From positions 1 to 64,000 of the forward strand of contig NZ_LPNR01000105.1 in NCBI RefSeq assembly GCF_019266065.1: a stretch of 64,000 bases of DNA, given 5' to 3'. Of the stretch, positions 37,508-56,343 are shown in pieces. This DNA is from Nocardia sp. MH4 (GTDB taxonomy: Bacteria; Actinomycetota; Actinomycetes; Mycobacteriales; Mycobacteriaceae). The notes under the pieces are model-generated. The model was given only the letters and a program-made list of their open reading frames with translations, did no database searches and was not told the DNA's origin. The translations under genes were made by a program, and so were the position numbers. Each line of letters begins with the position of its first letter. Position 1 is the first letter of the stretch.

Positions 37508-37542
37508 ATATCCTCCACCGTCGAAGGCAATTCCGCGGTCGA

Positions 37543-37576
37543 CGGGGTCTGCCCCCGGATCGGCGGGCAGGCCCCG
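37543..37576. terminator. Hairpin after the small secreted protein gene
   Basis: CGGGGTCTGCCC (37543-37554) pairs with GGGCAGGCCCCG (37565-37576) with one G-U pair, six bases beyond the stop of the minus-strand gene ending at 37582. Probable terminator. Confidence 0.55.
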
Positions 37577-37581
37577 ATCGA

Positions 37582-37824: not shown

Positions 37825-37900
37825 AGGTGAATCCTTTCGAACCAGATCGTGCAGGCCTACACCCTGCCCCAGATTCCCGCCGCTGTCGTCCCCTGATCTG

Positions 37901-40496: not shown

Positions 40497-40708
40497 CTGC
40501 CGCCGAACATGATCTTCTTCGTCACCGCGCGAAACGGCCGGGGCAACGCCCCCAACATCGAGTCGATCGACTTGTCCAACGCCTTCGCCTCGAACGTCAC
40601 CGCCGCCCGCATCAACTCGAACAAGTCCCTGGCCTCATCAGCAGGCAAACTCTGTAGCGAGGGCAGCGCCACGGGCACGCCACCCTCACGGTCACTTCGA
40701 TTCGTCAT
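40493..40708 (-). CDS. Small hypothetical protein co-translated with the 424-residue protein
   Basis: 71 residues: a polar N-terminus, then an amphipathic helical part (LPADEARDLFELMRAAVTFE) and a basic C-terminus (RPFRAVTKKIMFGGR). The stop overlaps the start of the next gene as ATGA. No family recognised; the coupling suggests a partner or subunit of the downstream product. Confidence 0.6.
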   Translation of the reverse strand: MTNRSDREGGVPVALPSLQSLPADEARDLFELMRAAVTFEAKALDKSIDSMLGALPRPFRAVTKKIMFGGR

Positions 40709-41135
40709 GTGACTCCTGGGTAACGCGAACTCACCCCCGAGGATGCCGCCTCCACCCGCCCCCGACCCCCAACTTCACGAAGATCTGTGCACAACAACGA
40801 AAACAACGACACGAATACATGTGAACCGACGTCCCACCGACGAAGTTTCACAGCATGTGTCCCTTGACACGCAGGACCTTCGATGCCGATGGGTGATGCC
40901 ATGTGGGGAACATCCATCCAGACCGTATGCTCGCCGTGAAATTCGGCATCGAGAGACAGGCCGTCGGGCATGGCATCGCGTATTCCGTTCCCGAAACAGC
41001 TGTCGCGGGCCACCTCGGATCACGACGTCCTCATGCGAAACGACGGGGGATTCTCTCACCGCGATCGGTGCTCTGCGGGACCACTGGACAGTGAAACAGT
41101 AGCCCCACGGCACACGGGGTCAGAATACCTTCACA
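40709..41135. other. AT-richer intergenic stretch, no supported gene
   Basis: This segment has visibly lower GC (for example around 40780-40830) than its surroundings and contains only short frames in both directions. The 102-codon minus frame 40705-41013 has no homology signal or ribosome site. It probably holds the promoter of the minus-strand pair and the left flank of the acquired defence operon. Confidence 0.45.
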
Positions 41136-41439
41136 CAAGACGCGCTCGATCCCGTCCCGCTGGTCGGCCTGCACTTCACCATCATGGGGATGGGCAGCAC
41201 GTCGACTGTCGCTGACGCGCAGATCGACCGCGCGATCTCGCTTGTTCGAGACCGGCTCTCCGCGACGAAGCCGTTCGACCTCACCATCGGCTCGCCGCCG
41301 AGCTCATTGAAGCCGTGCCCTGCCTGCGAGCCGCCGATCCAGTGACAGTGCGGGTGCACCAGGTCGAACTGGTGGTGGTCCGGCCGAAGGCCGGACCTAC
41401 CGGTGGGACACGTGCGCGGCGCTTCCGTTCAGCGGGTAG
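41136..41439 (+). pseudogene. Decayed 2'-5' RNA ligase family gene
   Basis: Three blocks in shifting frames match the LigT / 2'-5' RNA ligase family of actinobacteria: LVGLHFTIMGMGS and VRDRLSATKPFDLTIG, then in another frame LIEAVPCLRAADPVTV and VHQVELVVVR, then in a third YRWDTCAALPFSG ending at a TAG (41437-41439). The middle of the gene, including the second HxT motif, is missing, so it is a deletion plus frameshift remnant. It lies directly before the methyltransferase gene. Confidence 0.55.
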
Positions 41440-41503
41440 TGCGTGCGGCAGGCCAGTAGTCGCAGCTCGGCCGGGGCGCATGCTTCTGTGCCTGAATGCC
41501 GAT

Positions 41504-41509
41504 TAAGAT
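41504..41509 (+). promoter_or_regulatory. Candidate -10 element for the methyltransferase gene
   Basis: TAAGAT ends six bases before ATG 41516; leaderless arrangement. Confidence 0.45.
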
Positions 41510-41515
41510 CGTCGG

Positions 41516-42685
41516 ATGCCGCCTGCAGTCCCCGAAGCCCCACGATTCGAGATGGTCGACCTGTTCGCCGGCCCTGGGGGCCTCGATGTTGCGGCGAAAT
41601 GGCTCGGGATCGAAACCGTCGGCATCGAATTCGATCCCAACGCGTGTGCGACACGGACTGTCGCGGGGCTCGACACGGTTGCCTCGGACGTCACAGATTG
41701 CTCACCGTCGGACTATCGAGCCAAGATCTTGGCAGGTGGGCCACCCTGTCAGACCTATTCGGTTGCTGGAGCCGGCGCAGGGCGCAATCGGCTGGCCCAT
41801 GTGTTGGACCTTGTGGAGCGGATGGGCGATTCCCCTGATCCCAACGTCCGACCTGAGCTGGACGGACTAGACGACGTCCGGACAGGCCTCGTCCTCGAAC
41901 CTCTCAAGTGGGCGCTTCAAGCGAAGCGGCAAGGCCGGCCCTACGACACGATCATCCTCGAGCAGGTCCCGACCGTACTTCCGGTGTGGGATGCGTACGC
42001 GAAGGTTCTTCGTAAGAACGGTTACTTCGCCGATGCCAAGGTGCTGTGCGCCGAAGAGTACGGCGTGCCGCAGACCCGCCGCCGAGCAATCCTGATCGCC
42101 CGGCGAGAGGGCGAGGTGGTCTGGCCGGAGAAAACGCATCAGAAGTTTGTTCGGGGTGGGAATACTCGGCACGGTGCTGATAAGCGCGAGCCCTGGGTAT
42201 CGATGCAGCACGCGCTGGGGCGCGAGGATGAGTTCGTCGTCATTTCCAACTACGGCACAGGTGGCGATCCGGCCGCTCGTGGCGAACGTCGATTCGACGA
42301 GCCGGCGTACACCGTGACCGGCAAAGTCTCGCGGAATCGAATTGTCGATTCACGCGGGAAGTATGTGGCCAACGTCAGCTCCGAGGATGCGGGCAGGCTT
42401 CAAACCTTTCCCTACGACTACCCGTGGTCGGGCTTGGACGTGTCGCAGCAAATCGGCAATGCCATCCCACCCAGGCTGGCTGCTCACGTGCTGTGCGCGG
42501 CGGTCTTCGGTCGACAGGTGTCGTCGGAAGCGCTCGACGTGGCCGTGGCCAGTTCATGGAAGGTGTCCCAATTGGGCGTACCAGGTCTTCGGCCCGTCGG
42601 GCCACCACCTGCCCAGACTTTCAACCAGCCGGCGGTCGAGGATCGTCAGCTGGAACTCATCGCGCAATCGGTGCTGGCCGGCTGA
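41516..42685 (+). CDS. DNA (cytosine-5)-methyltransferase
   Basis: The 389-residue C5 methyltransferase has all key motifs: I DLFAGPGG (15-22, SAM binding), IV GGPPCQTYS with catalytic Cys78, VI as EQV with Glu149 (usually ENV), VIII QTRRR (186-190), IX RLQTFP, and X IGNAIPP (313-319). The stretch between VIII and IX, which holds the target recognition domain, is short. It would protect host DNA at the sites attacked by the following genes. It probably has a leaderless promoter and is separated from the nuclease/ATPase genes by a 185-base gap with an inverted repeat, allowing separate control. Confidence 0.93.
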   Translation: MPPAVPEAPRFEMVDLFAGPGGLDVAAKWLGIETVGIEFDPNACATRTVAGLDTVASDVTDCSPSDYRAKILAGGPPCQTYSVAGAGAGRNRLAHVLDLVERMGDSPDPNVRPELDGLDDVRTGLVLEPLKWALQAKRQGRPYDTIILEQVPTVLPVWDAYAKVLRKNGYFADAKVLCAEEYGVPQTRRRAILIARREGEVVWPEKTHQKFVRGGNTRHGADKREPWVSMQHALGREDEFVVISNYGTGGDPAARGERRFDEPAYTVTGKVSRNRIVDSRGKYVANVSSEDAGRLQTFPYDYPWSGLDVSQQIGNAIPPRLAAHVLCAAVFGRQVSSEALDVAVASSWKVSQLGVPGLRPVGPPPAQTFNQPAVEDRQLELIAQSVLAG

Positions 42686-42749
42686 GTCGTCCGGTCTGGT
42701 GGGACACGTGTAGCGAACCGCTGTTGCCCGCCGATAGCCCACATCGACC

Positions 42750-42806
42750 GGGTAACAACTATCCCGCTTGACCGGAACTAGTCGGATCGAGCCGATATTG
42801 TTACCC
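42750..42806. promoter_or_regulatory. Inverted repeat in the gap between methyltransferase and Z1 genes
   Basis: GGGTAACAA (42750-42758) and TTGTTACCC (42798-42806) are perfect complements 39 bases apart. A short C5/G5 hairpin follows at 42804-42818. This is a possible operator or attenuator controlling the restriction genes. Confidence 0.4.
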
Positions 42807-42870
42807 CCAACGTGGGGGAGTCAAACCTCCCAGCGTCGACTAAGGGGATTTGCGCAGGTGGGAGTAGCCG

Positions 42871-45426
42871 ATGAGTGATCTGATCGATGGCCAGTACGAC
42901 GTGTTCAAAACCTTCCTGGACAAGGACACTCCGGCTGAAGCCATCAAGAAGCTCAGGCTGTTCGCCTCGGAAGACGTGATCAAGCGGATCATGGACCGCT
43001 ACGACCAGGACATGGTGCGGATCAAGGAGATGCGCGAACCGCACTCCGTGGTGATCGACAATTACGAAACCTGGTATGCGGGACCGCATCCCGACGACCG
43101 ACTGTGGCCCGCGATCCAGGACGACCTCATCAGGCAGGGCTGGCCGCAAGACCCGGCCATCGACAGCCTCGACGATTCGTCCACCCGGATCGTGTCGTTG
43201 CTGCAACACCCGCGAAAGAACGCGTTCTCCACACGGGGACTCGTGGTCGGGTACGTACAGTCGGGCAAGACCACGAACTTCACCGCGGTGATGGCGAAGG
43301 CCGCCGACCGGGGCTACAAGCTGTTCATCGTGTTGGCCGGTATCCACAACGGCCTTCGTCGGCAGACTCAGGCGCGCCTCATCCAGCAGCTGGTCGAACC
43401 CAACCCGACGCTGTGGACCCAGATCACCGACCTCGATCGTGACTTCAGCCCCACCGCCAATCCCGCGAGCTTCTTCGGCAAGTCGAACAAGACCCACGTT
43501 CTCTGCGTCGTGAAGAAGAACGCCACGGTGTTGCGGAAGCTGGTGAAGTGGTTGGGCGATGCTTCCGACTACCTGGCTGACTGCCCAGCCCTCATCATCG
43601 ACGACGAGGCCGATCAGGCGACGGTGGCGACGAAGTCGATCAACCCTCTGATCCGGCAGATTCTCAACACCTTGCCGAAATCGGCTTACGTGGGCTACAC
43701 CGCGTCACCGTTCGCGAACTTGCTCATCGACCCCTCCGCGGATGACCTGTACCCCGAGCACTTCATCGTGAATCTGCCCAAACCCGATGGCCATTTCGGC
43801 ACCGAGGTGCTGTTCGGTCGGTATGCCCTCGACGGTGAGGATCCTGCCGAGGTCGACGACGGCTACGACATGATCCGCAATGTTCCCGACGACGATGTCG
43901 AGCTGGTCCGCCCCAAGACGCGAGCGGACGCCGAGGACTTCTACCCGTCGATCACCGCCACGCTGCGGCGCGCGGTGATGTACTTCTGGATGACGACGGC
44001 CGCGCGTCGGGTGCGTGGCAGCGGAAACCCACACTCCACCATGCTGATTCACACCAGCGTGCGGACCGCGGTACACAACAGCTTCCGCGACCCGCTGCTG
44101 GCGTTGCGCGCGGCGACCGGACGCAATCTGTCGGACGCGGCTCTACTGCGTGAGATGCGTGCGTTGTGGGACGAGGAGACCTCGCGGGTGCCCGCTGTCG
44201 CGTTCGACGAGAAGCCGGTTTCCTTCGACGAATTGGCCGCCGAGCTGCCCGGGGTGCTCCGTGACTGCCGTGTCGTGATGGACAACTCGGAAAGCACCGA
44301 CCGCCTCGACTACGAGAACGGCCCCGTGGTGGCGATCGCCGTGGGTGGTAACACGTTGTCGCGAGGTCTGACGTTGGAGGGGTTGTCCGTCAGCTACTTC
44401 GTCCGGGCCGTGTCGACCTACGACACCCTGCTCCAGATGGGCCGGTGGTTCGGCTATCGCACGGGCTACGCCGATCTCCCTCGTATCTGGATGACCGCCG
44501 AACTCGAAGACTGGTTCCGCCACCTCGCCACCGTCGAGACCGAGATGCGCCGCGACATCGACGTCTACATGACCGAGGGCAAGACGCCGATGACCTTCGC
44601 GGTGCGGCTGCGTACCCATCCCTCGCTGCGAGTCACCGCCGCCGCGAAGATGAAGGACGCGGTGTCGGCGTTCTCGTCCTATGGCGGCCAGCGTGTCCAG
44701 ACCCGGTACTTCCGCAAGGAATCGGACTGGTTGCTCCGGAACCAATCCGCGGCCCGCGCGCTCGTGACTGCTGCCGGTCGATTCGGCCAGGTCGAGGGAA
44801 ACGGCGCGGACGGCCGCTACCTCATCCGTGACGTTCCCAGTGAGACGGTCATGAACTTCCTGCGCGAGTATCAGTTCCACGAGAAGTCACAGGAGTGCGA
44901 TGCCGATCTGATGATCGGCTACATCGAGAAGCGGATCCGCAACGCGGGCACGTTGCGGCGGTGGAACATCGCCGTGGTCGGTAAGCCCGCGATCGACGAC
45001 GCGGACCTGTTCGACTTCGCCCCGGGGATCGGCGTCGGCAGGATCATCCGATCGCAGTTCGCCGCGACGTCGGACCATACGGATATCAAGACGTTGATGA
45101 GCCGTCGGGACGCCGGGATCGACCTCGACGGCATCACCTCGAGCACGACCGAGGAAGACATCGCCAAGGCGCGGAAGGCGCAGCACCCCGATGCCGGATT
45201 ACTGGTGCTGTATCCGATCGACAAGACCTCCGAGCCGGAGCCGTCGAAGACTCGGCGACAGGCATTGAACGCGCCGGAGCACGTCATCGGCGTCGGTCTG
45301 GTGTTCCCGACGCCGACCGACGACGACAGCACCGTCGCGTGGGAAGCCGACTATATCTCTGCGGACCTGTCCGGGGTAGAGATCGAGGAGGAGGATTTCA
45401 GCGCCCTCGAATCCGAGGAGCTCTGA
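42871..45426 (+). CDS. Z1 domain superfamily II helicase-like ATPase
   Basis: The 851-residue protein carries the Z1 domain of restriction systems. Walker A is VVGYVQSGKTTNF (GYVQSGKT at 127-134), the DEAD-like Walker B is IIDDEADQA (244-248), YVGYTASPFANLLID is motif III-like, and GNTLSRGLTLEGLSVSYF with QMGRWFGYR is like motifs V and VI. It probably translocates on or remodels DNA for the nuclease. GGGAG precedes ATG 42871. Its TGA shares one base with the next start. The family link to methyltransferase and paraMORC genes is established knowledge; the mechanism is not. Confidence 0.9.
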   Translation: MSDLIDGQYDVFKTFLDKDTPAEAIKKLRLFASEDVIKRIMDRYDQDMVRIKEMREPHSVVIDNYETWYAGPHPDDRLWPAIQDDLIRQGWPQDPAIDSLDDSSTRIVSLLQHPRKNAFSTRGLVVGYVQSGKTTNFTAVMAKAADRGYKLFIVLAGIHNGLRRQTQARLIQQLVEPNPTLWTQITDLDRDFSPTANPASFFGKSNKTHVLCVVKKNATVLRKLVKWLGDASDYLADCPALIIDDEADQATVATKSINPLIRQILNTLPKSAYVGYTASPFANLLIDPSADDLYPEHFIVNLPKPDGHFGTEVLFGRYALDGEDPAEVDDGYDMIRNVPDDDVELVRPKTRADAEDFYPSITATLRRAVMYFWMTTAARRVRGSGNPHSTMLIHTSVRTAVHNSFRDPLLALRAATGRNLSDAALLREMRALWDEETSRVPAVAFDEKPVSFDELAAELPGVLRDCRVVMDNSESTDRLDYENGPVVAIAVGGNTLSRGLTLEGLSVSYFVRAVSTYDTLLQMGRWFGYRTGYADLPRIWMTAELEDWFRHLATVETEMRRDIDVYMTEGKTPMTFAVRLRTHPSLRVTAAAKMKDAVSAFSSYGGQRVQTRYFRKESDWLLRNQSAARALVTAAGRFGQVEGNGADGRYLIRDVPSETVMNFLREYQFHEKSQECDADLMIGYIEKRIRNAGTLRRWNIAVVGKPAIDDADLFDFAPGIGVGRIIRSQFAATSDHTDIKTLMSRRDAGIDLDGITSSTTEEDIAKARKAQHPDAGLLVLYPIDKTSEPEPSKTRRQALNAPEHVIGVGLVFPTPTDDDSTVAWEADYISADLSGVEIEEEDFSALESEEL

Positions 45427-46442
45427 TGTCGAACCGGGTGAAGGAGGTTCTCGACGAGCAGTGGCGCGGATTGCTCCGACGGCCACGGACCGAGGACTCC
45501 GTCGTCACTCTCGCCGAATTGCCGGTAGTGACCGTCGCCGGATCCTTGGCGGTGGCTGTGGACAACGCCGGTCACCGGCACCTGCTCGTCCCGATCGGTG
45601 CGTATCAGAATGTGCGCCGTGGCCTCAACGGTCCCGTCTTGCGTCTGAGCAAGCGAATACTGGAGAACGACGGCAGCTTTCACGACTACGCCGATCTGGC
45701 CTGTCTGCGTCCCGATCTGAACGACATCTTCACCACGCTGTGCGCCGAGATCCTCGTCGCGACCGAACAGGCGCCGGAGAATCCCGTGAAGGTGCTCCAC
45801 CGCACGCTCGACCGATGGCGCGCATTGTTTCTCAATCCCGGACCACCCCTCGGCCCACAGCAGATCGCGGGGCTCTTCGGTGAGCTGATCGTCTTGGAAC
45901 GGTTGCTCGAGCGGGATGGCGGCGCAAGTCGGCTGTGGACGGGTCCATCGGGTTACCGCCACGATTTCGCCACCGACTTGGGCGCTGTCGAGGTCAAGGT
46001 GTCCACGGGGCACGATGGCCGCGAAGTCAGAATTCACGGTCTGGATCAGTTGGAGCCGCCGGTGGATGGTGCGCTCGGTCTCGTGTGGTTCCGGCTGGAA
46101 TCGAGTGCGCATGACGGCATCGGAATCGTGGAACTGGTCAAGCGGGTGCTCGATCTCGCCGATGACGAAAGCGAGGTGCTCTCTCTCCTCGCCACCGTCG
46201 GCTACCGCGCCGCGGACAACGATCACTATGCGCACGTGCGGTTCTCGATCGATGAGCAACGTTGGTACAACGTCGATATCGCGTTCCCGCGGCTGACGAC
46301 TGTCGACCTGGCAGCCGCGGCGGTCTCGACCAATGTCCGCAATGTCGACTACACGATAGATCTGTCGGGAGAGGTGCCCGCGCCGATGGACGCCGATGAT
46401 GTGGAGCGGCACATCACGTTGATGCTCGAGGAATCCCGATGA
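45426..46442 (+). CDS. PD-(D/E)XK nuclease-fold protein (DUF4420-like)
   Basis: The 338-residue protein has a nuclease core near its centre: GLFGELIVLERLL (Glu153), YRHDFAT (Asp180) and AVEVKVS (Glu189, Lys191), the D...ExK arrangement of restriction endonuclease folds. It matches the PD-(D/E)XK motif family found beside Z1 ATPases. It is likely the cutting subunit. ATG 45426 overlaps the Z1 stop by one base and the gene's own stop overlaps the next start by four, so all are tightly coupled. Confidence 0.82.
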   Translation: MSNRVKEVLDEQWRGLLRRPRTEDSVVTLAELPVVTVAGSLAVAVDNAGHRHLLVPIGAYQNVRRGLNGPVLRLSKRILENDGSFHDYADLACLRPDLNDIFTTLCAEILVATEQAPENPVKVLHRTLDRWRALFLNPGPPLGPQQIAGLFGELIVLERLLERDGGASRLWTGPSGYRHDFATDLGAVEVKVSTGHDGREVRIHGLDQLEPPVDGALGLVWFRLESSAHDGIGIVELVKRVLDLADDESEVLSLLATVGYRAADNDHYAHVRFSIDEQRWYNVDIAFPRLTTVDLAAAAVSTNVRNVDYTIDLSGEVPAPMDADDVERHITLMLEESR

Positions 46443-48421
46443 CAGCGCCCGCGTGGGTATCTCAGCCGTTCCCGCCCGAAGGGGCCAGCGCGGCCGAGGG
46501 AATTCGAAATCAGCTCGGAAAACCCGAGCTGGACCATCTGACGATCCTGGTCCGGGAGTCGGCCCAGAACAGTTGGGATGCTCGTCGAGGCGATGGCATC
46601 CCGGTGGACTACCGCATCGACCTGCAGACGATCAGTGCCGCGGACGCTCCGGCCTGGCGGGAGAATCTACTGCGCCGGGCGCCGGCGAAACAGCGCCTGC
46701 CGCTGCGGGAGTCGCTGCAACAGCCGACTATTCGGGTCCTGTCCATCTCCGACCGCGGGACCCGTGGGCTCGGCGGACCGACTCGAGCAGACGCCGTCAC
46801 CGACCGAGGGCGTGATTTCGTCGCCTTCCTGCGCAATATCGGTGAGCCGCGCGATCAGGCACTGGGCGGCGGCACCTACGGATTCGGCAAAGGCATCCTC
46901 TACCTGGTATCGAACGCTGGCACGATTCTGGTCCATACCCGGTGTGAATACGAGGGCCGCTACGAGACTCGATTGATGGGTGCGGCGCTGTGGAAGAGCT
47001 ATGACGCGGTGGAAGACGGTCGCGAACGTCGCTACACCGGGCGACACTGGTGGGGCGACGGATCGGGCGAGGTGATCGAGCCGCTCGTCGGCGCGGAAGC
47101 CGACACCATGGCGCGCAAACTGGGTCTTCGACCCTTCGGCGACACCGAGACCGGAACGACCATCTCGATTCTCGATCCGAATCTCGACAACAGCGAACCG
47201 TCGGATGTCGCTCGATACCTCGCCGAAACAATCGTCTACCAGCTGTGGCCGAAGATGATTCCCGATGCCGACGGCACACCGCCGATGCGGTTCACGGTGA
47301 CCTGTGACGGCATCGACTATCCCGTCCCCGACCCGGCCAGGATGAAGACACTCAAACTCTTCGTCGCGGCCTATCGAAAGATGCTCAGCCGCGAGGCCAC
47401 GGAGTTGCATTGCCGTCGGCCGAAGAAGCTCCTCGGCCGGTTCGGGATGCATCAGACGATCGCCCAGCGCTTCGAACCGAGCAACGCCGAGAACATGGCG
47501 GGATTCGATACCGGGATGGTCCACCACGTGTGCCTGATGCGTCCGGCAGAGTTGGTGGTCACCTACTGGGCTGGGCCGAAGCCGGGCAGTGAGTACTCGG
47601 CGTACGCGGGAGTCTTCCGCGCGGACCGAGAACTCGACGACGCCTACGCAGCGGCAGAGCCGCCGACACACGACAACTGGAACTATCAGTCGCTCGACCA
47701 CCCGGAGCACTCGTTCGTGAAGATGACGTTCGTGCGGATGAAGGAGGAGATCGACGCGGTCATCGGGCCTCGTGGCAGCAGCGGCGTCGAGGTCGCCCAG
47801 GTGTCGTTGGGTGCCGCGAGCGACCGGCTGTCCCCCCTCGTCGGTGGAGCGTGGGGTGTGGGATCGGCGACCGACTACGGCAGACCAGGCGAGACCGCGC
47901 CACCGCCACGCGCCGCGCCTGCTCGACGACCCAGTGGTCGACGACCTGAGCCGGTCGACTCCGGCAACGGGGATGCCCCGGGTTCACCATCGGTACCGAA
48001 TGGTTTGGGTGCCGACGGGCAGCCCTCTTTCGGCAGCGACTTCAGCGAGGCCGGGGGACGATCGGCTCAGCCGGCGCCGCGCCGACGGCGTCCCAAGATC
48101 GAGTACGTCGGTGAGCCGGAACCGGCAGAGCTCTGGGGGCACGGGGTGGTCGTGCAACGGTTCACATTGCCCGTGGCCGTTCCGCAGCGGGTGAGCGCGG
48201 ACGTGGCAGTCGCCCTCAACAGCGACGGAGGCCTGGAGATGGACCCGCCGGCCGGTGCGGAGATGCCCGGCCTCGTCGGTTGGGAAGACCCTCAGGGCGA
48301 GGTACATCAAACCCCAACCTACGTCATCGAGGGTGGCGACGGCAGTGTGTGGAAGGCGGTCGTCAAGCCCGCGGCGGACACGATGACCGACATCGTGCTG
48401 TACACCGAGGCGGTCGCCTGA
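46439..48421 (+). CDS. GHKL ATPase of paraMORC type
   Basis: The 660-residue protein has an N-terminal GHKL (histidine kinase/MutL/MORC) ATPase. The N box is VRESAQNSWDAR (Glu40, Asn44, Asp47), the G1 box SDRGTRGLGG (Asp105, Gly107), and the glycine-rich lid GGGTYGFGKG (143-152). An S5-like region follows, then a Pro/Gly-rich linker at about 490-560 and a C-terminal beta domain. Published analysis of MutL homologues in restriction systems predicts that such proteins dimerise on ATP and reshape DNA or protein complexes. It overlaps neighbours on both sides (ATGA, then a one-base overlap). Confidence 0.85.
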   Translation: MTAPAWVSQPFPPEGASAAEGIRNQLGKPELDHLTILVRESAQNSWDARRGDGIPVDYRIDLQTISAADAPAWRENLLRRAPAKQRLPLRESLQQPTIRVLSISDRGTRGLGGPTRADAVTDRGRDFVAFLRNIGEPRDQALGGGTYGFGKGILYLVSNAGTILVHTRCEYEGRYETRLMGAALWKSYDAVEDGRERRYTGRHWWGDGSGEVIEPLVGAEADTMARKLGLRPFGDTETGTTISILDPNLDNSEPSDVARYLAETIVYQLWPKMIPDADGTPPMRFTVTCDGIDYPVPDPARMKTLKLFVAAYRKMLSREATELHCRRPKKLLGRFGMHQTIAQRFEPSNAENMAGFDTGMVHHVCLMRPAELVVTYWAGPKPGSEYSAYAGVFRADRELDDAYAAAEPPTHDNWNYQSLDHPEHSFVKMTFVRMKEEIDAVIGPRGSSGVEVAQVSLGAASDRLSPLVGGAWGVGSATDYGRPGETAPPPRAAPARRPSGRRPEPVDSGNGDAPGSPSVPNGLGADGQPSFGSDFSEAGGRSAQPAPRRRRPKIEYVGEPEPAELWGHGVVVQRFTLPVAVPQRVSADVAVALNSDGGLEMDPPAGAEMPGLVGWEDPQGEVHQTPTYVIEGGDGSVWKAVVKPAADTMTDIVLYTEAVA

Positions 48422-49317
48422 TGGCGAATCGCGTCCTGCCGTACAAGAAGCCGTCGTCGAACGTGGTTCGTGCCGGCGCGTGGTTGCTGTCCATCGACGG
48501 TGACGAGATGTCGCTTCCCGACCACCTGCCGCATTGGGACTATCAGACGAATCTGTCGTTGCGGAGAGTCATCCACGTCGATATCGATCGGGCTCTGGCC
48601 GAGGCGACCTTGGCTCCCGGCACCGAGTTGGCTTTGGCCGCGGTGTGGACATCGACAGGGTCGAAACTTCGCGGCGTGGTTTCGCGTGTCGTCGTTCCCG
48701 CGCACGGCGAGATCGAGCTGCGAGCCGAACTCGTCGGAGCGGATCTCGGTGGGGTACTGACACTGGATACCTCCCTGGTTCTGGCGCACCGCAGGCGCGG
48801 CACCGACCGGCCGGTTGCTCCGCGGCGGGGTGGGTCAGTCCTGTGGAGTGATCGCAGTCAGATTCGTCTGCAGGGAGATGCGCCTCAGTTCCCCATCGCG
48901 ATCGTGGATTTCGCGCGCACCAACTATCCGGGGGATGCCGCGTGGCACCTCGAGATCGGTTCGAATCTCGACGTGGCCACGATGGGGTCCCTGCTCCTGC
49001 TGGTCAACGAGAAGAAGACGCTGATCGCCGAAGCTCTGCAGCGGGCGGGGAATCCGCGTCTCCAAGATAAGATGGCGCTGTCGATGCTGTACGCGGATGT
49101 GGCCCGGACGATGGTCGACCATGCTCTTCGGATCAGCGATTTCGATGATGACGCAACGTATCTCGATGAAACGCTGGGCGCTACGCTACAAGAACTCTTC
49201 GGGCGCTTGTTCCCCGGACGATCGATCACCGATGTCCGGCTGGCCGCCCAGGAATCGCCGAATCTGTTCGCATCCCAGCTTCAGGCGGCGGTCAAGATCT
49301 TCGAGGGGGTCGTATGA
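48421..49317 (+). CDS. Unrecognised component of the Z1/paraMORC operon
   Basis: A 298-residue soluble protein with no recognised motif. The N-terminal half looks beta-rich (VRAGAWLLSIDGDEM; LRRVIHVDIDRALAEATLAP), the C-terminal half helical with repeated leucines and acidic patches. ATG 48421 shares one base with the paraMORC stop, and its own stop overlaps the next ATG by four, so it is made with the complex. It could be a specificity or scaffold subunit; that is inference from position. Confidence 0.6.
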   Translation: MANRVLPYKKPSSNVVRAGAWLLSIDGDEMSLPDHLPHWDYQTNLSLRRVIHVDIDRALAEATLAPGTELALAAVWTSTGSKLRGVVSRVVVPAHGEIELRAELVGADLGGVLTLDTSLVLAHRRRGTDRPVAPRRGGSVLWSDRSQIRLQGDAPQFPIAIVDFARTNYPGDAAWHLEIGSNLDVATMGSLLLLVNEKKTLIAEALQRAGNPRLQDKMALSMLYADVARTMVDHALRISDFDDDATYLDETLGATLQELFGRLFPGRSITDVRLAAQESPNLFASQLQAAVKIFEGVV

Positions 49318-50144
49318 CGCTGCTGTATCCGAGGTTGTTGCGGCACCGGGCCAAACTCCTCGCCGCGGAATACAAGGAACGCAGTGCCCTCGACCTGAAC
49401 AGTGCGTGGGCGCTCACCGACGAGACGGCGGTGTTCGTCGCCACCGGGGGTACTCGGGTGGAACCCGAGAAGCTGCAGATACTCCGGGACATGGTCGTCG
49501 ACCTGGCAAAGGAATCCGGATTTCCGGAGCTTCCGGATGCCAAACAGAAGACCGCCTTCGACCTGCGGTTGGCGGTCGCACTGCACCGGGAAATGCGCAT
49601 TTCCCCCGCGGAGGCGGCGTCGGGCGACGTCTGGGCCTTCCTGGCCCTGATCGTCCTTCCCGACGTCGCGCACTGGCGCTACCCCAAGCCGCCGGGCGAT
49701 CGCGTGCTCGCCTCGGACCTCACCCGTCACGTCTTCGGGCGTATGTGGTGGCGTGCGCAGTTGGTCTACGCCCCGACCGACGCCGACCCCTACGCTGCCC
49801 TCCACGTTCTCGGTGAAGCGGCCTTCGATCAGATCTACGCGCGCCGCGCTGCTCTCGGCGGCAGCCCGCACCTGATCAAATCGATTCTGCGGGTGTGGAA
49901 ACAGATGAATCTCGCAGGCTTGGCCGAGCGTGACATCCTTCGAGACTTCCTGAAGCGCCTGCTCAGGCTGGCGCCGTTCGTCGTGTTCGAAGCGCTCGAT
50001 GACTACGCGCTGGACGAGGAACTGCTCGAGATCGCCAGGGAAACCGTCGTCGGGTATCTGACCGCACGAGGGTCACTCTCGGCGAGTGACGCCGATGCCC
50101 GGGCCGCACTGGTTTTCGCGACACCGGCGACCACCGGTCGGTGA
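49314..50144 (+). CDS. DUF6339-like protein of the defence operon
   Basis: A 276-residue helical, basic and Arg-rich protein beginning MTLLYPRLLRHRAKLLAAEY. It contains GDVWAFLALIVLPDVAHWRYP and VFGRMWWRAQLVY, which I associate with the DUF6339 family seen beside Z1 operons (moderate confidence). No catalytic motif was found. It is coupled to the upstream gene by ATGA and ends 130 bases before the OLD-type ATPase gene. Confidence 0.6.
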   Translation: MTLLYPRLLRHRAKLLAAEYKERSALDLNSAWALTDETAVFVATGGTRVEPEKLQILRDMVVDLAKESGFPELPDAKQKTAFDLRLAVALHREMRISPAEAASGDVWAFLALIVLPDVAHWRYPKPPGDRVLASDLTRHVFGRMWWRAQLVYAPTDADPYAALHVLGEAAFDQIYARRAALGGSPHLIKSILRVWKQMNLAGLAERDILRDFLKRLLRLAPFVVFEALDDYALDEELLEIARETVVGYLTARGSLSASDADARAALVFATPATTGR

Positions 50145-50274
50145 CAATTCGGTGAGAGGCATCGGGAGGGCCGCCGACTCGCGGAGGCTCCCACGGTCTG
50201 ACTCACCTCTGTTCTCCACGTTGTGATGGAACGGCGCAGTCCGACCGCGCCTCTTGTGAAAGGTGTTGTGCACG

Positions 50275-52173
50275 ATGGGCTCCGGTGGCCAGAAGCGAGA
50301 CCTGAATCAATCCTTGACTTCGGCGTTCGACGGGGGCACAAGGTTCTTGCCCTACATCGAAGAGATTCGATTTCCGATGTACAAAGCCCTTGCCGCCGAT
50401 CTCACCTTGAACTTCCCATGGCCCATCACGGCATTGATCGGCCCGAACGGGACCAACAAGAGCTCCATCCTGCAGGCCCTGTCGTCGGCGCCGGAGGGTA
50501 GAAGTCTCGCGGAGTTCTGGTTCTCGACCGAGGTGGACGACATCGATGCTGGTGGCAGGGGCCGGGCATCGCACCGATTCATCTACAAGTACGTGTTCGA
50601 CAACAGCGGGACGCGGGCGGAGTGCCGCAAGTATCGAGGAAACAAGCCGTATCGGTCGAAGGTCCCCGCGAAGCTCACGGGGAAGCGGGATCCCGACTAC
50701 TGGGAGCCCACCAAACGTGTCGACGTCGACAACATGGCGGATGTACCCGCGGTCGGTTTCGACACGATGGTGTCGGCCAACCGTGACCGTTGGAATCTGA
50801 TCCGAAAGAACGTGGTGTACCTCGACTTTCGGTCGGAGATCAGCGCCTTCGACAAGTACATTCACCACAGTCCGCTCGACCGGTGGGTTTCGGAACCGTC
50901 GCAGCGGCGGTTCCGGGTGATCCTGAACTCGGCTCTGGTCGCGCGTGCGCTGCGCGGTGATTCCGTCCCGACCACGCACCAGAAGAAGCTGGTGGCGAGG
51001 GTTCGTGAACTGGACGAGCCATCGGTTCAGGCAGCCGCCCGCATCCTGGGAAAGCCGCTACGGCGTGTCGATATGCTCGAGCACAAGTTCTTCGGGCCGC
51101 AGGGCTTCACTGTCCGACTGCACGTCGGTGACGCCACCACGGGTATGTCCAACGCTGGTCGATCGGTGTATTCCGAGGCACACGCGGGCAGTGGCGAGTA
51201 CGCCGTCGTCAGGTTGGTGGATGCGATCAAGCGCGCACCGGAAGGGTCACTGATCCTGCTCGACGAGCCGGAGGTTTCGCTGCATCCGGGGGCTCAGGCA
51301 GCGCTGATGGAGTTCATCAAATCGGAGACCTTGGCGAAGGGACATCAGGTCGTTATTGCCACTCACTCGCCGATTCTGGTCGCCGATCTGCCGCCCGCGG
51401 CGATCAAGGTGCTGGCGTTCGACTCGAAGTCGAACCGGGTGGTGAAGATTGCCGACGCCTGCTCGCCGACCGAAGCGTTCGCGCATCTGGGACAGACCGT
51501 GTTCAACTCACGTCGGAAGATTCTGGTCGAAGACGACCTGGCTGCTGAATTGGTACGGGCCGCACTGCGCGTACACGCGCCGACGAAGCTGGACACGCTG
51601 GAGATCGTGCCCTTCCCCGGTGGTTCGGGCGGCATCGTCAAGACCGCGCTGGCGAGCTTCGCAATGTCCGACATGTCGGAGATCGGCATTCTGTTGGATG
51701 GGGACCAACGGGTTCCGGGACGAGGTTCGGCGCTCGACGTCGCCAGGGCTGTCGGTGCGGCGGGAGACAACTTCGATGCCCTGAAAGCGATCTGGAAGTC
51801 GACCTTCCACGAGGCCGTGCCCGATCTGCCGATCGATCACGGTTCTGACAATGATCGGAACAACCGCAACAAGTGCAAAGCGGTGCGTACGTGCATCTTT
51901 TGGGCGAACGACCATTTGGACTTCTTGCCTGGTACCACTCCCGAATCGTTGCTCAGCGAAGCATTGGGCTATGTACCTTCGGGTACCGACGGCAAGGCTG
52001 CGAAACAGGATTGGTTCGAGCGATACCGCGACGAGATGCGGTTGACCCAGTCCGAGCAGGTGTCGTCGGCAGACGTTCTGGGCTATCAGAAGGTCAAACT
52101 GGCCGGACTTCCTCAGGATTCTCCGCATCTCAAGGACGTGTTCGGGGCCGTGGAGCGGATTGTGAGTTGGTGA
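50275..52173 (+). CDS. OLD-family ATPase/TOPRIM nuclease, terminal gene of the operon
   Basis: 632 residues from ATG 50275, with GAAAGG 11 bases upstream; GTG 50263 is in frame. The SMC/ABC-type ATPase has Walker A GPNGTNKSS (56-64; Asn replaces the usual second Gly), a signature-like HAGSGEYAVVRLV, Walker B LILLDEPEVSLHP, and H-loop ATHSP. A TOPRIM-like part follows with ILVEDDLAAELV (Glu) and GILLDGDQR (DxD). OLD nucleases such as GajA and phage P2 Old cut DNA in phage defence. It may be an added effector of the Z1 system or an independent neighbour. Confidence 0.82.
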   Translation: MGSGGQKRDLNQSLTSAFDGGTRFLPYIEEIRFPMYKALAADLTLNFPWPITALIGPNGTNKSSILQALSSAPEGRSLAEFWFSTEVDDIDAGGRGRASHRFIYKYVFDNSGTRAECRKYRGNKPYRSKVPAKLTGKRDPDYWEPTKRVDVDNMADVPAVGFDTMVSANRDRWNLIRKNVVYLDFRSEISAFDKYIHHSPLDRWVSEPSQRRFRVILNSALVARALRGDSVPTTHQKKLVARVRELDEPSVQAAARILGKPLRRVDMLEHKFFGPQGFTVRLHVGDATTGMSNAGRSVYSEAHAGSGEYAVVRLVDAIKRAPEGSLILLDEPEVSLHPGAQAALMEFIKSETLAKGHQVVIATHSPILVADLPPAAIKVLAFDSKSNRVVKIADACSPTEAFAHLGQTVFNSRRKILVEDDLAAELVRAALRVHAPTKLDTLEIVPFPGGSGGIVKTALASFAMSDMSEIGILLDGDQRVPGRGSALDVARAVGAAGDNFDALKAIWKSTFHEAVPDLPIDHGSDNDRNNRNKCKAVRTCIFWANDHLDFLPGTTPESLLSEALGYVPSGTDGKAAKQDWFERYRDEMRLTQSEQVSSADVLGYQKVKLAGLPQDSPHLKDVFGAVERIVSW

Positions 52174-52188
52174 TCGCCGGTCGCGGAA

Positions 52189-52833
52189 TCAATTCGTCGC
52201 GCGGACCTTGATGGCGTCGTGGGAGATGAGGACGTCGTATTCGCCGGGGGTGGCGATGACGGCGTTGCCGTAGGCGGATTTGACGAAGGGGGAGGTGTAC
52301 CAGGTGCCGGTGTTCATGTCTTCGAAGAAGTCTCGGTCGCTGCCGTTGAGCATGATGTGGTCCTGGTGGGTGGCTTTGCCGTCGAGGCGCTGGCCGTAGA
52401 GGCGGGTGATCTTGTAGCCGGAGTGGAAGCCGAGGGCGTTGACCCAGGGGTGGAGTTCGACGATGTTGGCTTGCAGGGCCCAGAGGTTGCCTTCGACGCG
52501 GTGGGTGGCGCGGGTGTCGACGGCGCCGTCGTCGTCGAAGAGGGTCAGTTCGATGTCGAGTTGGTCGGACTGTCCGGCAACGGGTTTCGCGGTGACGTGG
52601 GCGGCGGTGATCTCGCCGGTCAGGCCCAGGTAGGTCTGGAGGAGGGTGGCGATCCAGAGCAGGAGGGTGGCGACGAGGAGCAGGGCCAGGCCGGGGGCGC
52701 CACGGCCCAGGATGGTCTTGAGGCCGCCGCGGCGGCGGGCCGCGAGGGCGGCGGAGACGAGCAGGGCTACGGCGAGTGCGAGCAGGGCGAGCAGGCCGAT
52801 CTGGGCGAACCCGAAGGTCACCGGGAAACTCAT
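52189..52833 (-). CDS. Hypothetical membrane-anchored protein
   Basis: A 214-residue protein with two N-terminal membrane helices (FGFAQIGLLALLALAVALLV; APGLALLLVATLLLWIATLL) and a beta-rich domain of about 140 residues predicted outside (PVAGQSDQLDIELTLFDDDG; EYDVLISHDAIKVR). Its stop is 15 bases from the convergent OLD gene, so the operon ends abruptly against an ordinary gene. ATG 52833 was chosen because it begins just before the first helix. No family recognised. Confidence 0.68.
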   Translation of the reverse strand: MSFPVTFGFAQIGLLALLALAVALLVSAALAARRRGGLKTILGRGAPGLALLLVATLLLWIATLLQTYLGLTGEITAAHVTAKPVAGQSDQLDIELTLFDDDGAVDTRATHRVEGNLWALQANIVELHPWVNALGFHSGYKITRLYGQRLDGKATHQDHIMLNGSDRDFFEDMNTGTWYTSPFVKSAYGNAVIATPGEYDVLISHDAIKVRATN

Positions 52834-52886
52834 GTACCGGTTGTACCCCGAATTCGACTGTAACAGGGGTGGTCTCGGCATCTCGG

Positions 52887-52892
52887 TAGGGT
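52887..52892 (+). promoter_or_regulatory. Candidate -10 element for NUDIX gene
   Basis: TAGGGT ends six bases before GTG 52899; leaderless arrangement. Confidence 0.35.
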
Positions 52893-52898
52893 GAATTC

Positions 52899-53324
52899 GT
52901 GGACAAGTATCGGGTACTCGTCGGCGTTCATCTGGTGCTGCTCGACGGTGACGGGCGGGTGTTGTTGGGGCGCAGGCTCGCTACCGGCTTCGGGGACGGG
53001 TTGTTCCATGTGCCCGCGGGACATCTCGAGGCGGGGGAGTCGGCGGTGGCGGGGTTGATCCGGGAGGCGCGCGAAGAGGTGGGCGTCGAGATCGACGCCG
53101 GGGATGTGGCATTCGCGCATGTGCTGCACAGCGACGAGCGGGTGCAGAAGTTCTTCGTCGTGCGGCGCTGGCGTGGGGAGGTTGTCAATCGGGAACCGGA
53201 GAAGTGTTCGGAGCTGCGGTGGTTCGATCCGGCACAGTTCCCGGCGGAGATCGTCGAATACTGCGAGGTCGGGGTGCGGGCGGCGCTGGCCGGGCGGGTG
53301 TTCTCCGAGTTGGGCTGGGACTAG
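52899..53324 (+). CDS. NUDIX hydrolase
   Basis: The 141-residue protein carries a complete Nudix box GHLEAGESAVAGLIREAREE followed by VGV (GX5EX7REUXEEXGU), which binds Mg and cleaves nucleoside diphosphate derivatives. The early strand VLLGRRLATGFGDGLFHVP and the C-terminal ELRWFDPAQFP are typical of MutT-like members. The substrate cannot be read from sequence. Its end overlaps the convergent membrane-protein gene by four bases. Confidence 0.92.
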   Translation: MDKYRVLVGVHLVLLDGDGRVLLGRRLATGFGDGLFHVPAGHLEAGESAVAGLIREAREEVGVEIDAGDVAFAHVLHSDERVQKFFVVRRWRGEVVNREPEKCSELRWFDPAQFPAEIVEYCEVGVRAALAGRVFSELGWD

Positions 53325-54610
53325 ACGGCTGGTCGGCGGCGCTGGATCAGCGCGATCGCGGCGGTGCAGGCGAGCGCGATGCCGATCGAGGCCGTCGCGG
53401 GGATCGGACCGCGGTCGACGTCGGCGGTGCGGTACCACGACGAGGAGTAGGCGAGGTGGCCGAATTCGTCGTCGCTCAACGCGACTCCGAGTGAGGGCAC
53501 GAACAGGATCGACAGGCCGACGACGGCGGAGGTGGGACTCCCGGGGACCGCCGAGCCGACGCAGTATCCGCACACCGCGCCCAGCGCCAGACAGCCGACG
53601 GCGGCGTTGAGGGCCGCCGGCGGGTCGAGCAGGTCGGTGGCCAGCACGAACACCGACAGCGCGACCACGGTGGCCGCGGCGAGGATCGCGCGCGGTGCGC
53701 GCAGACCGACCAGCAGCCCGGCGCCGAGAGCGATCATGGTGCCCACGTCGACCAGGCCCGAGCGGGGCAGGGTGATGACGAGGCTGCCCGCCACGGCGAA
53801 TGTGGTCATCAACAGCAGCAGGACGCCGTCGCGGTCGGGCAGGATCAGCGCGGCCGTCGTCGCGGCCGCCACGACGACGATCGCGCCGACGAGCACGTAC
53901 GGGACGGTGATCTCGCGCACGGCCACCGCCAGTGACGCCGCCAGGATTGCCGAGAAGGCGATGACGGCGGCGAACACGGGCGCCAACGGGATCGCGGTGT
54001 CGAGGACCGGGCGCGGCGAGGTGGTGGTCGTCGCCGCGAAGTAGCCGAGGGCCAGGACGGTGGCCGCGATGAACCACAGCGGCAGGGTGCCGGCGAGGAC
54101 GCCGTCGAAACCGGCCGAGGTCTCGTCGGTGGGCGCCTCGGTGAGGTCACCGAGCACGGTCGCGGCGGGCACGGCGAACAGGTACACCCCGCGCAACAGC
54201 GGGGCGGGCCAGACCGCGACGGCCAAGGCGCCCACCGCCATTCCGGCCAGGAGGGCGTCGACGAAGTTCAGGGTCGGCAGGGACAGGCCGGTGAAATGCG
54301 TGCTGTCGGCATTGCGGGCCAGGACCAGATGACTGAGCAGGATTCCCGCGAGCGCGACCAGTGCCGTCCACCGGGCCGTGCGCACGCTGCCGACGGCGAC
54401 GGTGACCGCGGCGGTGATGACCGCGACGAACGCGCCGCCGGTCATCGCGCGCGGGATGTTGAACACCAGCAGGTCGACGTGGCGCGATTCGGCCAGAGCG
54501 GCGAAGCTGATCGGCAGCATGATGGCGAGGACGGCGACCGCGGCGGCCACGAACACCGTGACCGCTTCGGCAGCGGTCCGCAGCTCGGTGGCGTTGGGCC
54601 GCCGGGTCAT
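53321..54610 (-). CDS. Polytopic membrane protein of unknown function
   Basis: The 429-residue protein has about 11-12 hydrophobic helices, rich in Ala, Val and Leu, with short loops and few charged residues in the membrane region. ATG 54610 gives a short basic N-terminus (MTRRPNATELRTAAEAV) before the first helix; the longer frame to 54844 is Arg-rich and unlike coding sequence of this type. No transporter signature was recognised. It may resemble actinobacterial proteins noted only as membrane proteins. Confidence 0.7.
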   Translation of the reverse strand: MTRRPNATELRTAAEAVTVFVAAAVAVLAIMLPISFAALAESRHVDLLVFNIPRAMTGGAFVAVITAAVTVAVGSVRTARWTALVALAGILLSHLVLARNADSTHFTGLSLPTLNFVDALLAGMAVGALAVAVWPAPLLRGVYLFAVPAATVLGDLTEAPTDETSAGFDGVLAGTLPLWFIAATVLALGYFAATTTTSPRPVLDTAIPLAPVFAAVIAFSAILAASLAVAVREITVPYVLVGAIVVVAAATTAALILPDRDGVLLLLMTTFAVAGSLVITLPRSGLVDVGTMIALGAGLLVGLRAPRAILAAATVVALSVFVLATDLLDPPAALNAAVGCLALGAVCGYCVGSAVPGSPTSAVVGLSILFVPSLGVALSDDEFGHLAYSSSWYRTADVDRGPIPATASIGIALACTAAIALIQRRRPAV

Positions 54611-54895
54611 CGGGCGGCCCGCACGGGTGGTCGCGGGCTCTTCGGGCGTCGCGCGATGGGGGCGTGCACCGAATCTCCGTTCTCGCGACCGGCTGGGTCC
54701 GGGCGGACCTGCGAGGGAGTCTATCCAGGGCCGATGCGCGCGCGGGCGCACGTGAGGTCCGCCGCCGCCGTGTCGCGGACCGGTCACCTGCCCGGTGGTG
54801 CCGCCGGTCGCCGCCGCCCTGCTGCCGGTGCCGGACCCAGGCATGCGACGATGAACGAATCTGCATGTCAGGTAAATGATTCGGAAGGTCGGTCG

Positions 54896-55099
54896 ATGCC
54901 GAACGGCGTTGTGAGCTGGTTCGACAGCGGTAAGGGATTCGGGTTCATCACCCCCGACGCGGGCGGGCCCGAGGTGTTCGTGGAATACACCGAGCTGGTC
55001 GGTGCGGGGTTCCGCACGCTACGGGCGGGTCAGCGGGTGGAATTCGGGGTCAGGGAGACCCGGCGCGGACCGGAAGCACAGCACGTGCGGGTCGTCTAG
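54896..55099 (+). CDS. Cold-shock protein, CspA family (first copy)
   Basis: The 67-residue OB-fold protein begins MPNGVVSWFDSGKGFGFITP. RNP1 is KGFGFI; the RNP2 position reads VFVEY where the second copy has VFVHY, so the usual RNP2 histidine is Glu. A GGAAGG ribosome site lies before ATG 54896. CspA-type proteins bind single-stranded RNA. Compared with the copy at 56403 it is more divergent (Asp at position 10, Arg-rich end), so it may have a specialised role. Confidence 0.9.
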   Translation: MPNGVVSWFDSGKGFGFITPDAGGPEVFVEYTELVGAGFRTLRAGQRVEFGVRETRRGPEAQHVRVV

Positions 55100-55211
55100 T
55101 GACCCCGACGGCATAGATCGCCGTGTGGTCGCGGCCGGCGAGACGACCGCGCTGACGATCAGCAGCCGGGCGCTGAGCCGGAGTGTCTCCCCGGGGTACG
55201 ACAGATTCGGC

Positions 55212-55994: not shown

Positions 55995-56343
55995 TGTCTA
56001 CTCCTTGCGTGATTTCTCCGCGAGGTGTGCGATCCCTCACGATCTCGGAAAATACGCTGGTAGAAAATTTGCCGTACTGGGTTTCTCGAAAATGTCTAGG
56101 GTTGCTGACGGTGATACGTCGCCGTGCCGTAGAGATGTCGATGGTGAACCGTGCCAGTCGGTTTGCTCGGTGCTGCCCAGCTAATCCGGCATCCGTGCCG
56201 CAACTGCCTCGGCATACGCCGAGCATCCGCTTCGTTGCCCGCCGCGCCCACTGTGTGACAGCACCAGGTGGCAGCATCGGGGGGTTGGGTTCCTCACAGT
56301 CCGCGAGCTCGAGTGTGGAGGAATTCGTCGGATCATGGCATTG

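What the first reader, a model, noticed from the sequence alone, without database searches (positions are those of the whole stretch)
48421..49317. Motif-less 298-residue protein embedded between paraMORC and DUF6339 genes
One-base and four-base overlaps on either side imply equimolar production with the paraMORC ATPase, yet no domain is recognisable. Candidates are a specificity subunit, a clamp loader-like adaptor, or an inhibitor that keeps the system silent.
Basis: inference. Interest (0 to 1): 0.5.

Follow-up and report, generated by a model that had tools for sequence, protein, structure and literature searches.

The report
Conserved middle subunit of paraMORC defence module
This unnamed bacterial protein is the fixed middle member of a three-gene set, built around a MutL/MORC-like ATPase, that is found beside several different kinds of anti-virus DNA-cutting systems, so it most likely bridges the ATPase to its third partner rather than choosing the DNA target.

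Summary
In detail: 48421-49317 (+) encodes a 298-aa protein (X) that overlaps the paraMORC gene by 1 base and the DUF6339 gene by 4; no Pfam, NCBIfam or PADLOC model or PDB sequence recognises it. It is no orphan. X is the middle gene of a set paraMORC2 - X - DUF6339, seen in 41 of 41 loci. With DUF6339 as independent seed, 25 of 25 loci carry X (24) or PADLOC's PDC-M33B (1) in that slot. The chassis beside it varies: Z1+DUF4420 (this window), Z1 alone, DISARM DrmA/DrmB, a long SF2 helicase, type II enzymes. In contrast, 47 of 47 IMG/VR Z1 loci lack the set. The ATPase has the ExxxH motif of paraMORC2 (47 of 50). X is acidic in 31 of 31 relatives, has no Walker A motif, evolves under strong purifying selection and does not follow the methyltransferase when that is replaced. 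This argues against specificity subunit or clamp loader and favours a structural adaptor: Ig-like N-domain (moderate model), helical C-half (unresolved). Homology to PDC-M33B is suggestive, not proven. Mechanism is inferred and untested.

The parts
48421..49317 (+). X: 298-aa middle subunit (slot of PADLOC PDC-M33B); N-terminal Ig-like sandwich about residues 11-152 (moderate model), helical C-half (low confidence)
46439..48421 (+). paraMORC2-type GHKL ATPase, 660 aa (PDC-M33A, E 6.7e-10); motifs ESAQNSWDA, GGTYGFGK and EPPTH (ExxxH)
   Evidence: family definition from PMC2292703 section 5
49314..50144 (+). DUF6339 protein, 276 aa (PF19866 E 1.8e-15; PDC-M33C E 5.2e-9)
45426..46442 (+). DUF4420, putative PD-(D/E)XK protein (PF14390 E 3e-51; MzaD-like, below the NCBIfam cut-off)
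42871..45426 (+). Z1-domain helicase/ATPase (PF10593 E 3.2e-67; MzaC-like, below the NCBIfam cut-off)
41516..42685 (+). C5-cytosine DNA methyltransferase of an 'SNYGxGG' class; associated but exchangeable between relatives
50263..52173 (+). AAA ATPase downstream of DUF6339; accessory, in that place in only two other loci (L016, L026)

Best explanation
X is the regular middle subunit of a portable three-protein module, paraMORC2 ATPase - X - DUF6339, here mounted on a Z1 helicase / DUF4420 nuclease / C5-methyltransferase restriction chassis. Shown: the three-gene unit and its order, conserved gene overlap, homology of X across two chassis types, exchangeability of the nuclease/helicase partner and of the methyltransferase, absence of enzymatic signatures. 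Inferred: X is a non-catalytic adaptor whose Ig-like N-terminal domain packs on the paraMORC2 ATPase and whose helical C-terminal half holds DUF6339, so that the GHKL dimer's ATP-driven opening and closing on DNA is passed on to gate whichever helicase/nuclease is nearby, with methylation marking self. It would work like accessory subunits that transmit a MutL/MORC clamp state to a separate nuclease.
For: Independent seeds: DUF6339 found in 25 of 388 class genomes, with X or PDC-M33B in the adjacent upstream slot in 25 of 25 (22 by the coordinates, 1 PDC-M33B). PDC-M33A found in 21 of 388: 19 have X or PDC-M33B; the other two (L187, L188) carry unassigned 262/265-aa and 260/255-aa ORFs in both slots. 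paraMORC2, X and DUF6339 in 41 of 41 loci; Z1 in 31, DUF4420 in 25, dcm in 36 somewhere in the stretch held (these loci were mostly found through X). Partners change: Z1, DrmA/DrmB, a long SF2 helicase, type II enzymes. X of Z1-type and DISARM-type loci are homologous (hhalign 94% and 96%, E 9e-8 and 8e-9; controls under 1%). X distances track paraMORC2 (r 0.984 in 23 loci, 0.974 in 31) and not dcm (0.335 in 23). X acidic in 31 of 31, no Walker A. DUF6339-C5 methyltransferase fusion.
Against: No physical interaction, ATPase or defence assay exists. The r values of X with Z1, DUF4420 and DUF6339 (0.976-0.977 in 23 loci) are nearly as high as with paraMORC2, and in the 31-locus set DUF6339 (0.975) is level with paraMORC2 (0.974), so the tree comparison does not single out one partner. 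Gene overlap is common in compact operons. The fold model is weak (mean pLDDT 56.5; C-half alone 45.7), so 'Ig-like' is provisional and the C-half unknown. X and 15 relatives are not recognised by PADLOC's PDC-M33B model, and the middle genes of L187/L188 are unassigned.
Confidence: 0.6

Rival explanations
1. X is the sensor of the module: its Ig-like domain binds a phage protein or infection-specific structure and switches the paraMORC2 clamp on.
For: Ig-like sandwich with a tied, unspecific similarity to the Pycsar AGS-C domain among many Ig-like folds (9ard, Z 8.1 at rank 35; best Z 8.9); acidic, no Walker A; the module is portable between effectors, as a shared trigger would be.
Against: Strong purifying selection (dN/dS 0.04-0.07) and 87% mean column identity over six Nocardia sequences, unlike a surface racing with phage; Ig-like folds are generic.
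Confidence: 0.18
2. X is an inhibitor that keeps the ATPase or nuclease silent until infection.
For: Small acidic protein (net charge -4 to -20 in 31 relatives), its gene overlapping that of the ATPase.
Against: Always between the same two partners (41 of 41), one copy in each of the genomes with a match; retained beside unrelated nucleases, so it would have to inhibit the ATPase itself.
Confidence: 0.13
3. X is a DNA-target specificity subunit (HsdS-like).
For: Lies in a restriction operon with no other obvious specificity gene.
Against: Acidic in 31 of 31; in L055 and L056, where X is 57% and 56% identical, the methyltransferase is a different kind (26% and 25% identity, no SNYG motif), while in L024, where X is only 31% identical, it is the same kind at 57%; r(X,dcm) 0.335 with the best-scoring dcm of each locus. 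Methylation sites are unknown, so a shared site is not excluded.
Confidence: 0.06
4. X is a clamp-loader-like ATPase adaptor.
For: Only its position beside a clamp-like GHKL ATPase.
Against: No Walker A motif in 31 of 31 (some clamp-loader subunits lack it too, from recall); N-half predicted as a beta sandwich, not AAA+.
Confidence: 0.02

Closest known systems
PADLOC candidate system PDC-M33 (A, B, C = DUF6339)
   Same: Same order and sizes; the window ATPase matches PDC-M33A (6.7e-10) and DUF6339 matches PDC-M33C (5.2e-9); X sits in the slot of PDC-M33B (289 positions).
   Different: X does not match the PDC-M33B model at E<=1; profile comparison only suggestive (E 0.0047, probability 7.5%). 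The nine PDC-M33B loci looked at lie beside type I/II restriction genes, not Z1/DUF4420 (annotation; G304).
paraMORC2 family of Iyer, Abhiman and Aravind 2008 (PMC2292703)
   Same: GHKL motifs and ExxxH motif; in restriction operons with a distinct SFII helicase and a predicted RE-fold nuclease.
   Different: The text seen (passages and section 5) names no fixed third and fourth partner; figures were not available, and the legend of Figure 2 speaks of uncharacterised domains X1-X3.
MZA system (MzaC Z1, MzaD PD-(D/E)XK by NCBIfam names)
   Same: Z1 and DUF4420 chassis; in the MZA-like locus L124 also a C5 methyltransferase and a GHKL protein.
   Different: In L124 the GHKL is a HATPase_c_3 protein and AIPR takes the last place (L124 was not scored against MZA models, one search failed); the window has neither, and its Z1/DUF4420 score below the NCBIfam MZA cut-offs.
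DISARM (DrmA/DrmB)
   Same: L025, L063 and L065 carry DrmA/DrmB-like genes beside the same module (PADLOC for L025; my own models for the others).
   Different: No DrmA or DrmB hit in window 36001-56000.
CglI / NgoAVII restriction systems (PMC4267653, passages)
   Same: Z1-domain ATPase needed for cleavage beside a C5 methyltransferase.
   Different: Their nuclease is a PLD/B3 protein that recognises the site; they are described as three-gene systems without paraMORC2, X or DUF6339.

Membership tests
PDC-M33 (PADLOC) | A component matches PDC-M33A | tested here: met
   E 6.7e-10; also 2.3e-6 in the genome search
PDC-M33 (PADLOC) | C component matches PDC-M33C | tested here: met
   E 5.2e-9
PDC-M33 (PADLOC) | B component matches PDC-M33B | tested here: not met
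   X: no family at E<=1; own genome no match to PDLC04583; none of 15 other X relatives matched
PDC-M33B homology of X (remote) | significant profile-profile similarity | tested here: inconclusive
   E 0.03-0.2 with 5 PDC-M33B members; with 9 members E 0.0047, probability 7.5% for all X, 0.0094 for DISARM-type X, only 0.083 for Z1-type X alone; score 28.2 against at most 25.7 in 30 block shuffles; global alignment failed
paraMORC2 (ATPase neighbour) | GHKL motifs plus ExxxH in the C-terminal part of the S5 domain | tested here: met
   ESAQNSWDA and GGTYGFGK, EPPTH; no Pfam GHKL model matches, and the S5 domain itself was not modelled
MZA | MzaC and MzaD above NCBIfam cut-offs, AIPR gene present | tested here: not met
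   396 of 1500 and 84 of 420 bits; none of the seven operon proteins matches AIPR
DISARM | DrmA and DrmB present | tested here: not met
   no DrmA/DrmB model hit in window 36001-56000
Type I specificity subunit (HsdS) | target recognition domains recognisable by sequence | tested here: not met
   no Pfam match for X at E<=1; acidic in 31 of 31
Type I specificity subunit (HsdS) | sequence-specific DNA binding | not testable with these tools
   needs a binding assay
Clamp loader / AAA+ | Walker A motif | tested here: not met
   0 of 31
Ig-like fold of the N-domain | beta sandwich matching known Ig-like folds | tested here: inconclusive
   model of moderate confidence, 6 sequences; best Z 8.9, 112 residues, rmsd 2.9 to RhoGDI, tied with GH2 Ig domains

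The most novel reading that the evidence does not exclude
paraMORC2-X-DUF6339 is a universal plug-in licensing unit of bacterial immunity: one ATP-driven clamp complex, with X as its essential bridge, that supplies the self/non-self decision to otherwise unrelated effectors (Z1/DUF4420, DISARM, long SF2 helicases and type II restriction), and X, PDC-M33B and the unassigned middle genes of L187/L188 are one very divergent family.
Probability: 0.3. Interest if true: 0.75.

Novelty: new variant of a known kind. Interest (0 to 1): 0.5.

Why it matters
Bacterial MORC-like ATPases are relatives of the eukaryotic MORC silencing proteins (PMC2292703, abstract), yet I found no test of function for the paraMORC2 branch or its partners in my searches. 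One ATPase that keeps the same two partners while the nuclease system beside it is swapped among DISARM, Z1/DUF4420 and type II enzymes would turn a set of unrelated-looking operons into one testable module, and would let annotation tools name many genes now called 'hypothetical protein'.

Tried and rejected
Profile searches of X: Pfam, NCBIfam, PADLOC, PDB gave nothing (the single-member Pfam hits, best E 0.015, are taken as chance). tblastn of X in phages: none; of a DISARM-type X in plasmids: none; of PDC-M33B in phages: none. Scans of IMG/VR for X, its cyanobacterial relative, PDC-M33B and paraMORC2: no relative. Structure of the C-half alone: pLDDT 45.7, not used. The 50 Foldseek rows shown have TM-scores of 0.17-0.28 on the query and are treated as generic sandwich matches. 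A first profile comparison with untrimmed N-termini (E 3e-11) was dropped in favour of trimmed ones. Idea that the small gene upstream of PDC-M33A is an HTH protein: not supported in five such genes, although two DISARM-type ATPases do carry an N-terminal HTH_3. Idea that the downstream AAA gene is a core part: rejected, in that place only in the window and in the two Rhizobiaceae loci. Idea that the methyltransferase target changes while X stays: only family replacement was shown; target sites are unknown. The count of X-carrying loci is partly circular because most loci were fetched with X, and alignment A1 used already holds one DISARM-type member (L025); hence the DUF6339 and PDC-M33A seeds. 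That first DISARM-type hit had E 7.6e-4 per genome in a search of 99 genomes, weak alone. The PDC-M33A seed gave two loci (L187, L188) whose ATPase aligns with the others (98.5%) but whose middle and last genes could not be assigned (E 0.0013, probability 18%, and E 0.046, probability 1.2%); told as open. L018 and L012 are the same contig; L018 was left out. Paper search for MzaC/MzaD returned unrelated papers.
Full report
WHAT IS THERE. The ORF at 48421-49317 (+) encodes a 298-residue protein, here X. It starts inside the stop codon of the preceding ATPase gene (TGATG) and its own stop overlaps the start of the DUF6339 gene (ATGA). The operon runs dcm C5 methyltransferase, Z1 helicase, DUF4420 putative PD-(D/E)XK protein, GHKL ATPase, X, DUF6339, then a separate AAA ATPase 118 bases on. 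X has no Pfam, PADLOC or NCBIfam match at E<=1 and no PDB sequence match better than E 1.4; of the 14 members of alignment A1 four scattered single-member Pfam hits, best E 0.015, are taken as chance. The genome belongs to Nocardia: one same-genus relative (G046) carries the match on a contig of the same length, 473,900 bases, as N. alba NZ_BDAX01000009.1.

X IS A CONSERVED FAMILY. Counting the own genome, X occurs in 10 of 99 relatives, in 25 of 394 class genomes and in 6 of 296 phylum genomes; it is also on plasmids of Rhizobium, Agrobacterium and Synechococcus. It is patchy, as defence genes are. Against L011 and L013 X has dN/dS 0.04 and 0.07, the lowest of the six operon genes compared. 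Across 31 members W39, F164, W175 and N196 are invariant; only one of these is polar, so no catalytic site is indicated.

THE UNIT IS A TRIAD. In 41 of 41 loci the ATPase, X and DUF6339 are all found, in that order. Because most loci were fetched through X, two independent seeds were used. DUF6339 (PF19866) matched 25 of 388 class genomes. In 22 of them the X hit lies directly upstream; in G367 and G412 X is found at E 3e-15 and 3e-20; in G304 the slot holds PDC-M33B. That is 25 of 25. PADLOC's PDC-M33A matched 21 of 388; 19 have X or PDC-M33B, and the remaining two (G209, G270) have ORFs of 262/265 and 260/255 residues in the two slots that no PADLOC model names (one PglZ hit at E 0.038 is taken as chance) and that profile comparison leaves open.

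THE ATPASE IS paraMORC2. It matches no Pfam GHKL model but has the Bergerat-type motifs (strict patterns in 33 and 43 of 47 loci, one of them a duplicate contig) and PDC-M33A similarity. Iyer et al. [quoted passage not shown] An E[PN]PxH motif is present in 47 of 50 ATPases of these loci; L059, L060 and L077 lack it.

THE CHASSIS CHANGES. Z1 is found in 31, DUF4420 in 25 and dcm in 36 of the 41 loci, somewhere in the stretch held. L025 carries DrmA (E 6e-198) and DrmB (E 3e-70) of DISARM with the triad; by my own models L063 and L065 do likewise, and L060 and L061 have Z1 plus DrmA/DrmB-like genes. Eight loci (L025, L067, L069-L074) have a long helicase related to the 1,569-aa protein of L025, which has ResIII, Helicase_C and a sacsin-type domain (only L025 was scanned). 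PDC-M33B loci sit beside type II enzymes and dcm, some with vsr, MmeI and type I genes or AlwI with adenine methylases. Conversely, 47 of 47 Z1 loci in IMG/VR have no paraMORC2, X, PDC-M33B or DUF6339 match at E<=0.01 (some are cut by contig ends); the one read in detail, L124, has dcm, a HATPase_c_3 GHKL protein, Z1, DUF4420 and AIPR, an MZA-like layout. So X belongs to the paraMORC2 module, not to the Z1/DUF4420 chassis.

HOMOLOGY ACROSS TYPES. The window's X alone found the DISARM-type X at E 7.6e-4 (per genome, 99 genomes searched). Profiles of the two groups, kept apart, align over about 265 columns with probability 94% (E 9e-8; 26 against 12 sequences) and 96% (E 8e-9; 19 against 12). 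X against the ATPase, DUF4420 and DUF6339 profiles scored under 1%. Against PDC-M33B the result went from E 0.03-0.2 with five members to 0.0047 with nine, in register from the N-terminus and above 30 block-shuffled controls (best E 0.011), but with a probability of only 7.5%, with E 0.083 when only Z1-type X is used, and with no global alignment. Shared slot, length and flanking homologues make common descent likely; sequence does not prove it.

WHAT X IS NOT. Net charge is -4 to -20 in 31 of 31 relatives and no Walker A is present. In 23 loci distances of X follow those of the ATPase (r 0.984), DUF4420 (0.977), DUF6339 (0.977) and Z1 (0.976) but not of the best-scoring dcm (0.335); in the 31-locus set X follows DUF6339 (0.975), the ATPase (0.974) and Z1 (0.966). 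Relatives with X at 56-57% (L055, L056) have methyltransferases of another kind, while L024 with X at 31% keeps the SNYGxGG kind at 57%. A subunit that reads the site protected by the methyltransferase should follow it. These points argue against specificity subunit and clamp loader. The correlations among the restriction components are all high and do not by themselves pick the ATPase as partner.

FOLD. VIA-align gives best Z 8.9 (rmsd 2.9-3.3, 111-112 residues) to RhoGDI with GH2 Ig-like domains tied, and 8.1 to the AGS-C domain of a Pycsar cyclase. This says Ig-like sandwich, no more. The C-half alone failed.

MECHANISM. Shown: an order-conserved triad with overlapping genes whose effector is exchangeable; DUF6339 fused to a C5 methyltransferase in L055 and a similar 614-aa ORF in L056, which ties the triad to methylation. 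Inferred: the paraMORC2 dimer acts as an ATP-driven DNA-manipulating engine, as proposed for MORC/paraMORC proteins in PMC2292703 (passages), here pictured as a clamp; X bridges it to DUF6339; the complex gates the local helicase/nuclease. The related paraMORC3-type protein VcSduA needs both its GHKL site and its fused nuclease for defence (PMC12137116, passages), which shows that a paraMORC-type ATPase can be needed with a nuclease, there without an X.

NOVELTY. PADLOC already lists PDC-M33 as a candidate, so the kind is known. New here, as far as the searches show, are the divergent B-slot family, its spread across Z1, DISARM and long-helicase loci, and the assignment to paraMORC2. The literature library holds no paper with 'DUF6339'; none of the 18 papers listed contains 'PDC-M33'; 'paraMORC2' occurs in only one of the papers found, PMC2292703; none of the six papers mentions paraMORC; and the main text of the YprA-helicase preprint PMC12458937 does not contain GHKL, MORC or MutL. 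Subscription journals are mostly not in that library, and Iyer's Figure 2 could not be seen. Of the papers I saw listings and abstracts, passages of PMC2292703, PMC4267653, PMC8011034, PMC5379612, PMC12137116 and PMC3710099, and section 5 of PMC2292703.

Noticed in passing
41516-52173 and 57609-59207: The island lies about 5 kb from serA; the same system also lies within about 9 kb of serA in L011, L015, L018 and L024, and GC is 0.62-0.65 against 0.65-0.71 in the flanks: a possible shared insertion hotspot.
   Followed up: partly
50263-52173: AAA ATPase directly after DUF6339; a related AAA gene sits in the same place in Rhizobium L016 and Agrobacterium L026, but in none of the other loci.
   Followed up: partly
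L055:10846-12690 and L056:7958-9802: DUF6339 fused to a C5-cytosine methyltransferase: shown by Pfam for L055; L056 has a 614-aa ORF that matches my dcm and DUF6339 models.
   Followed up: partly
L025:11460-13595 and L068:7782-9887: DISARM-type paraMORC2 proteins carry an N-terminal HTH_3 domain, which was not detected in the window's ATPase.
   Followed up: no
L019:1990-6503: A Nocardia relative has Z1 followed directly by the paraMORC2 gene, with no DUF4420 gene between.
   Followed up: no
L161:6041-13482: PDC-M33-type genes on a conjugative Lactococcus plasmid, close to abiGI/abiGII and AlwI-type restriction genes.
   Followed up: no
L020:15415-16920: DUF6339 protein extended to 501 aa with a weak DUF3320 match; a separate DUF3320 gene lies beside the triad in Arthrobacter L160.
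   Followed up: no
L187:5321-8821 and L188:5170-8719: A third, very divergent paraMORC2-like + two-gene arrangement next to dcm; middle and last genes match no model.
   Followed up: partly
window, about 54.9-55.1 kb and 56.4-56.6 kb: Two cold-shock-like coding stretches downstream of the island (seen; the name is recalled, not tested).
   Followed up: no
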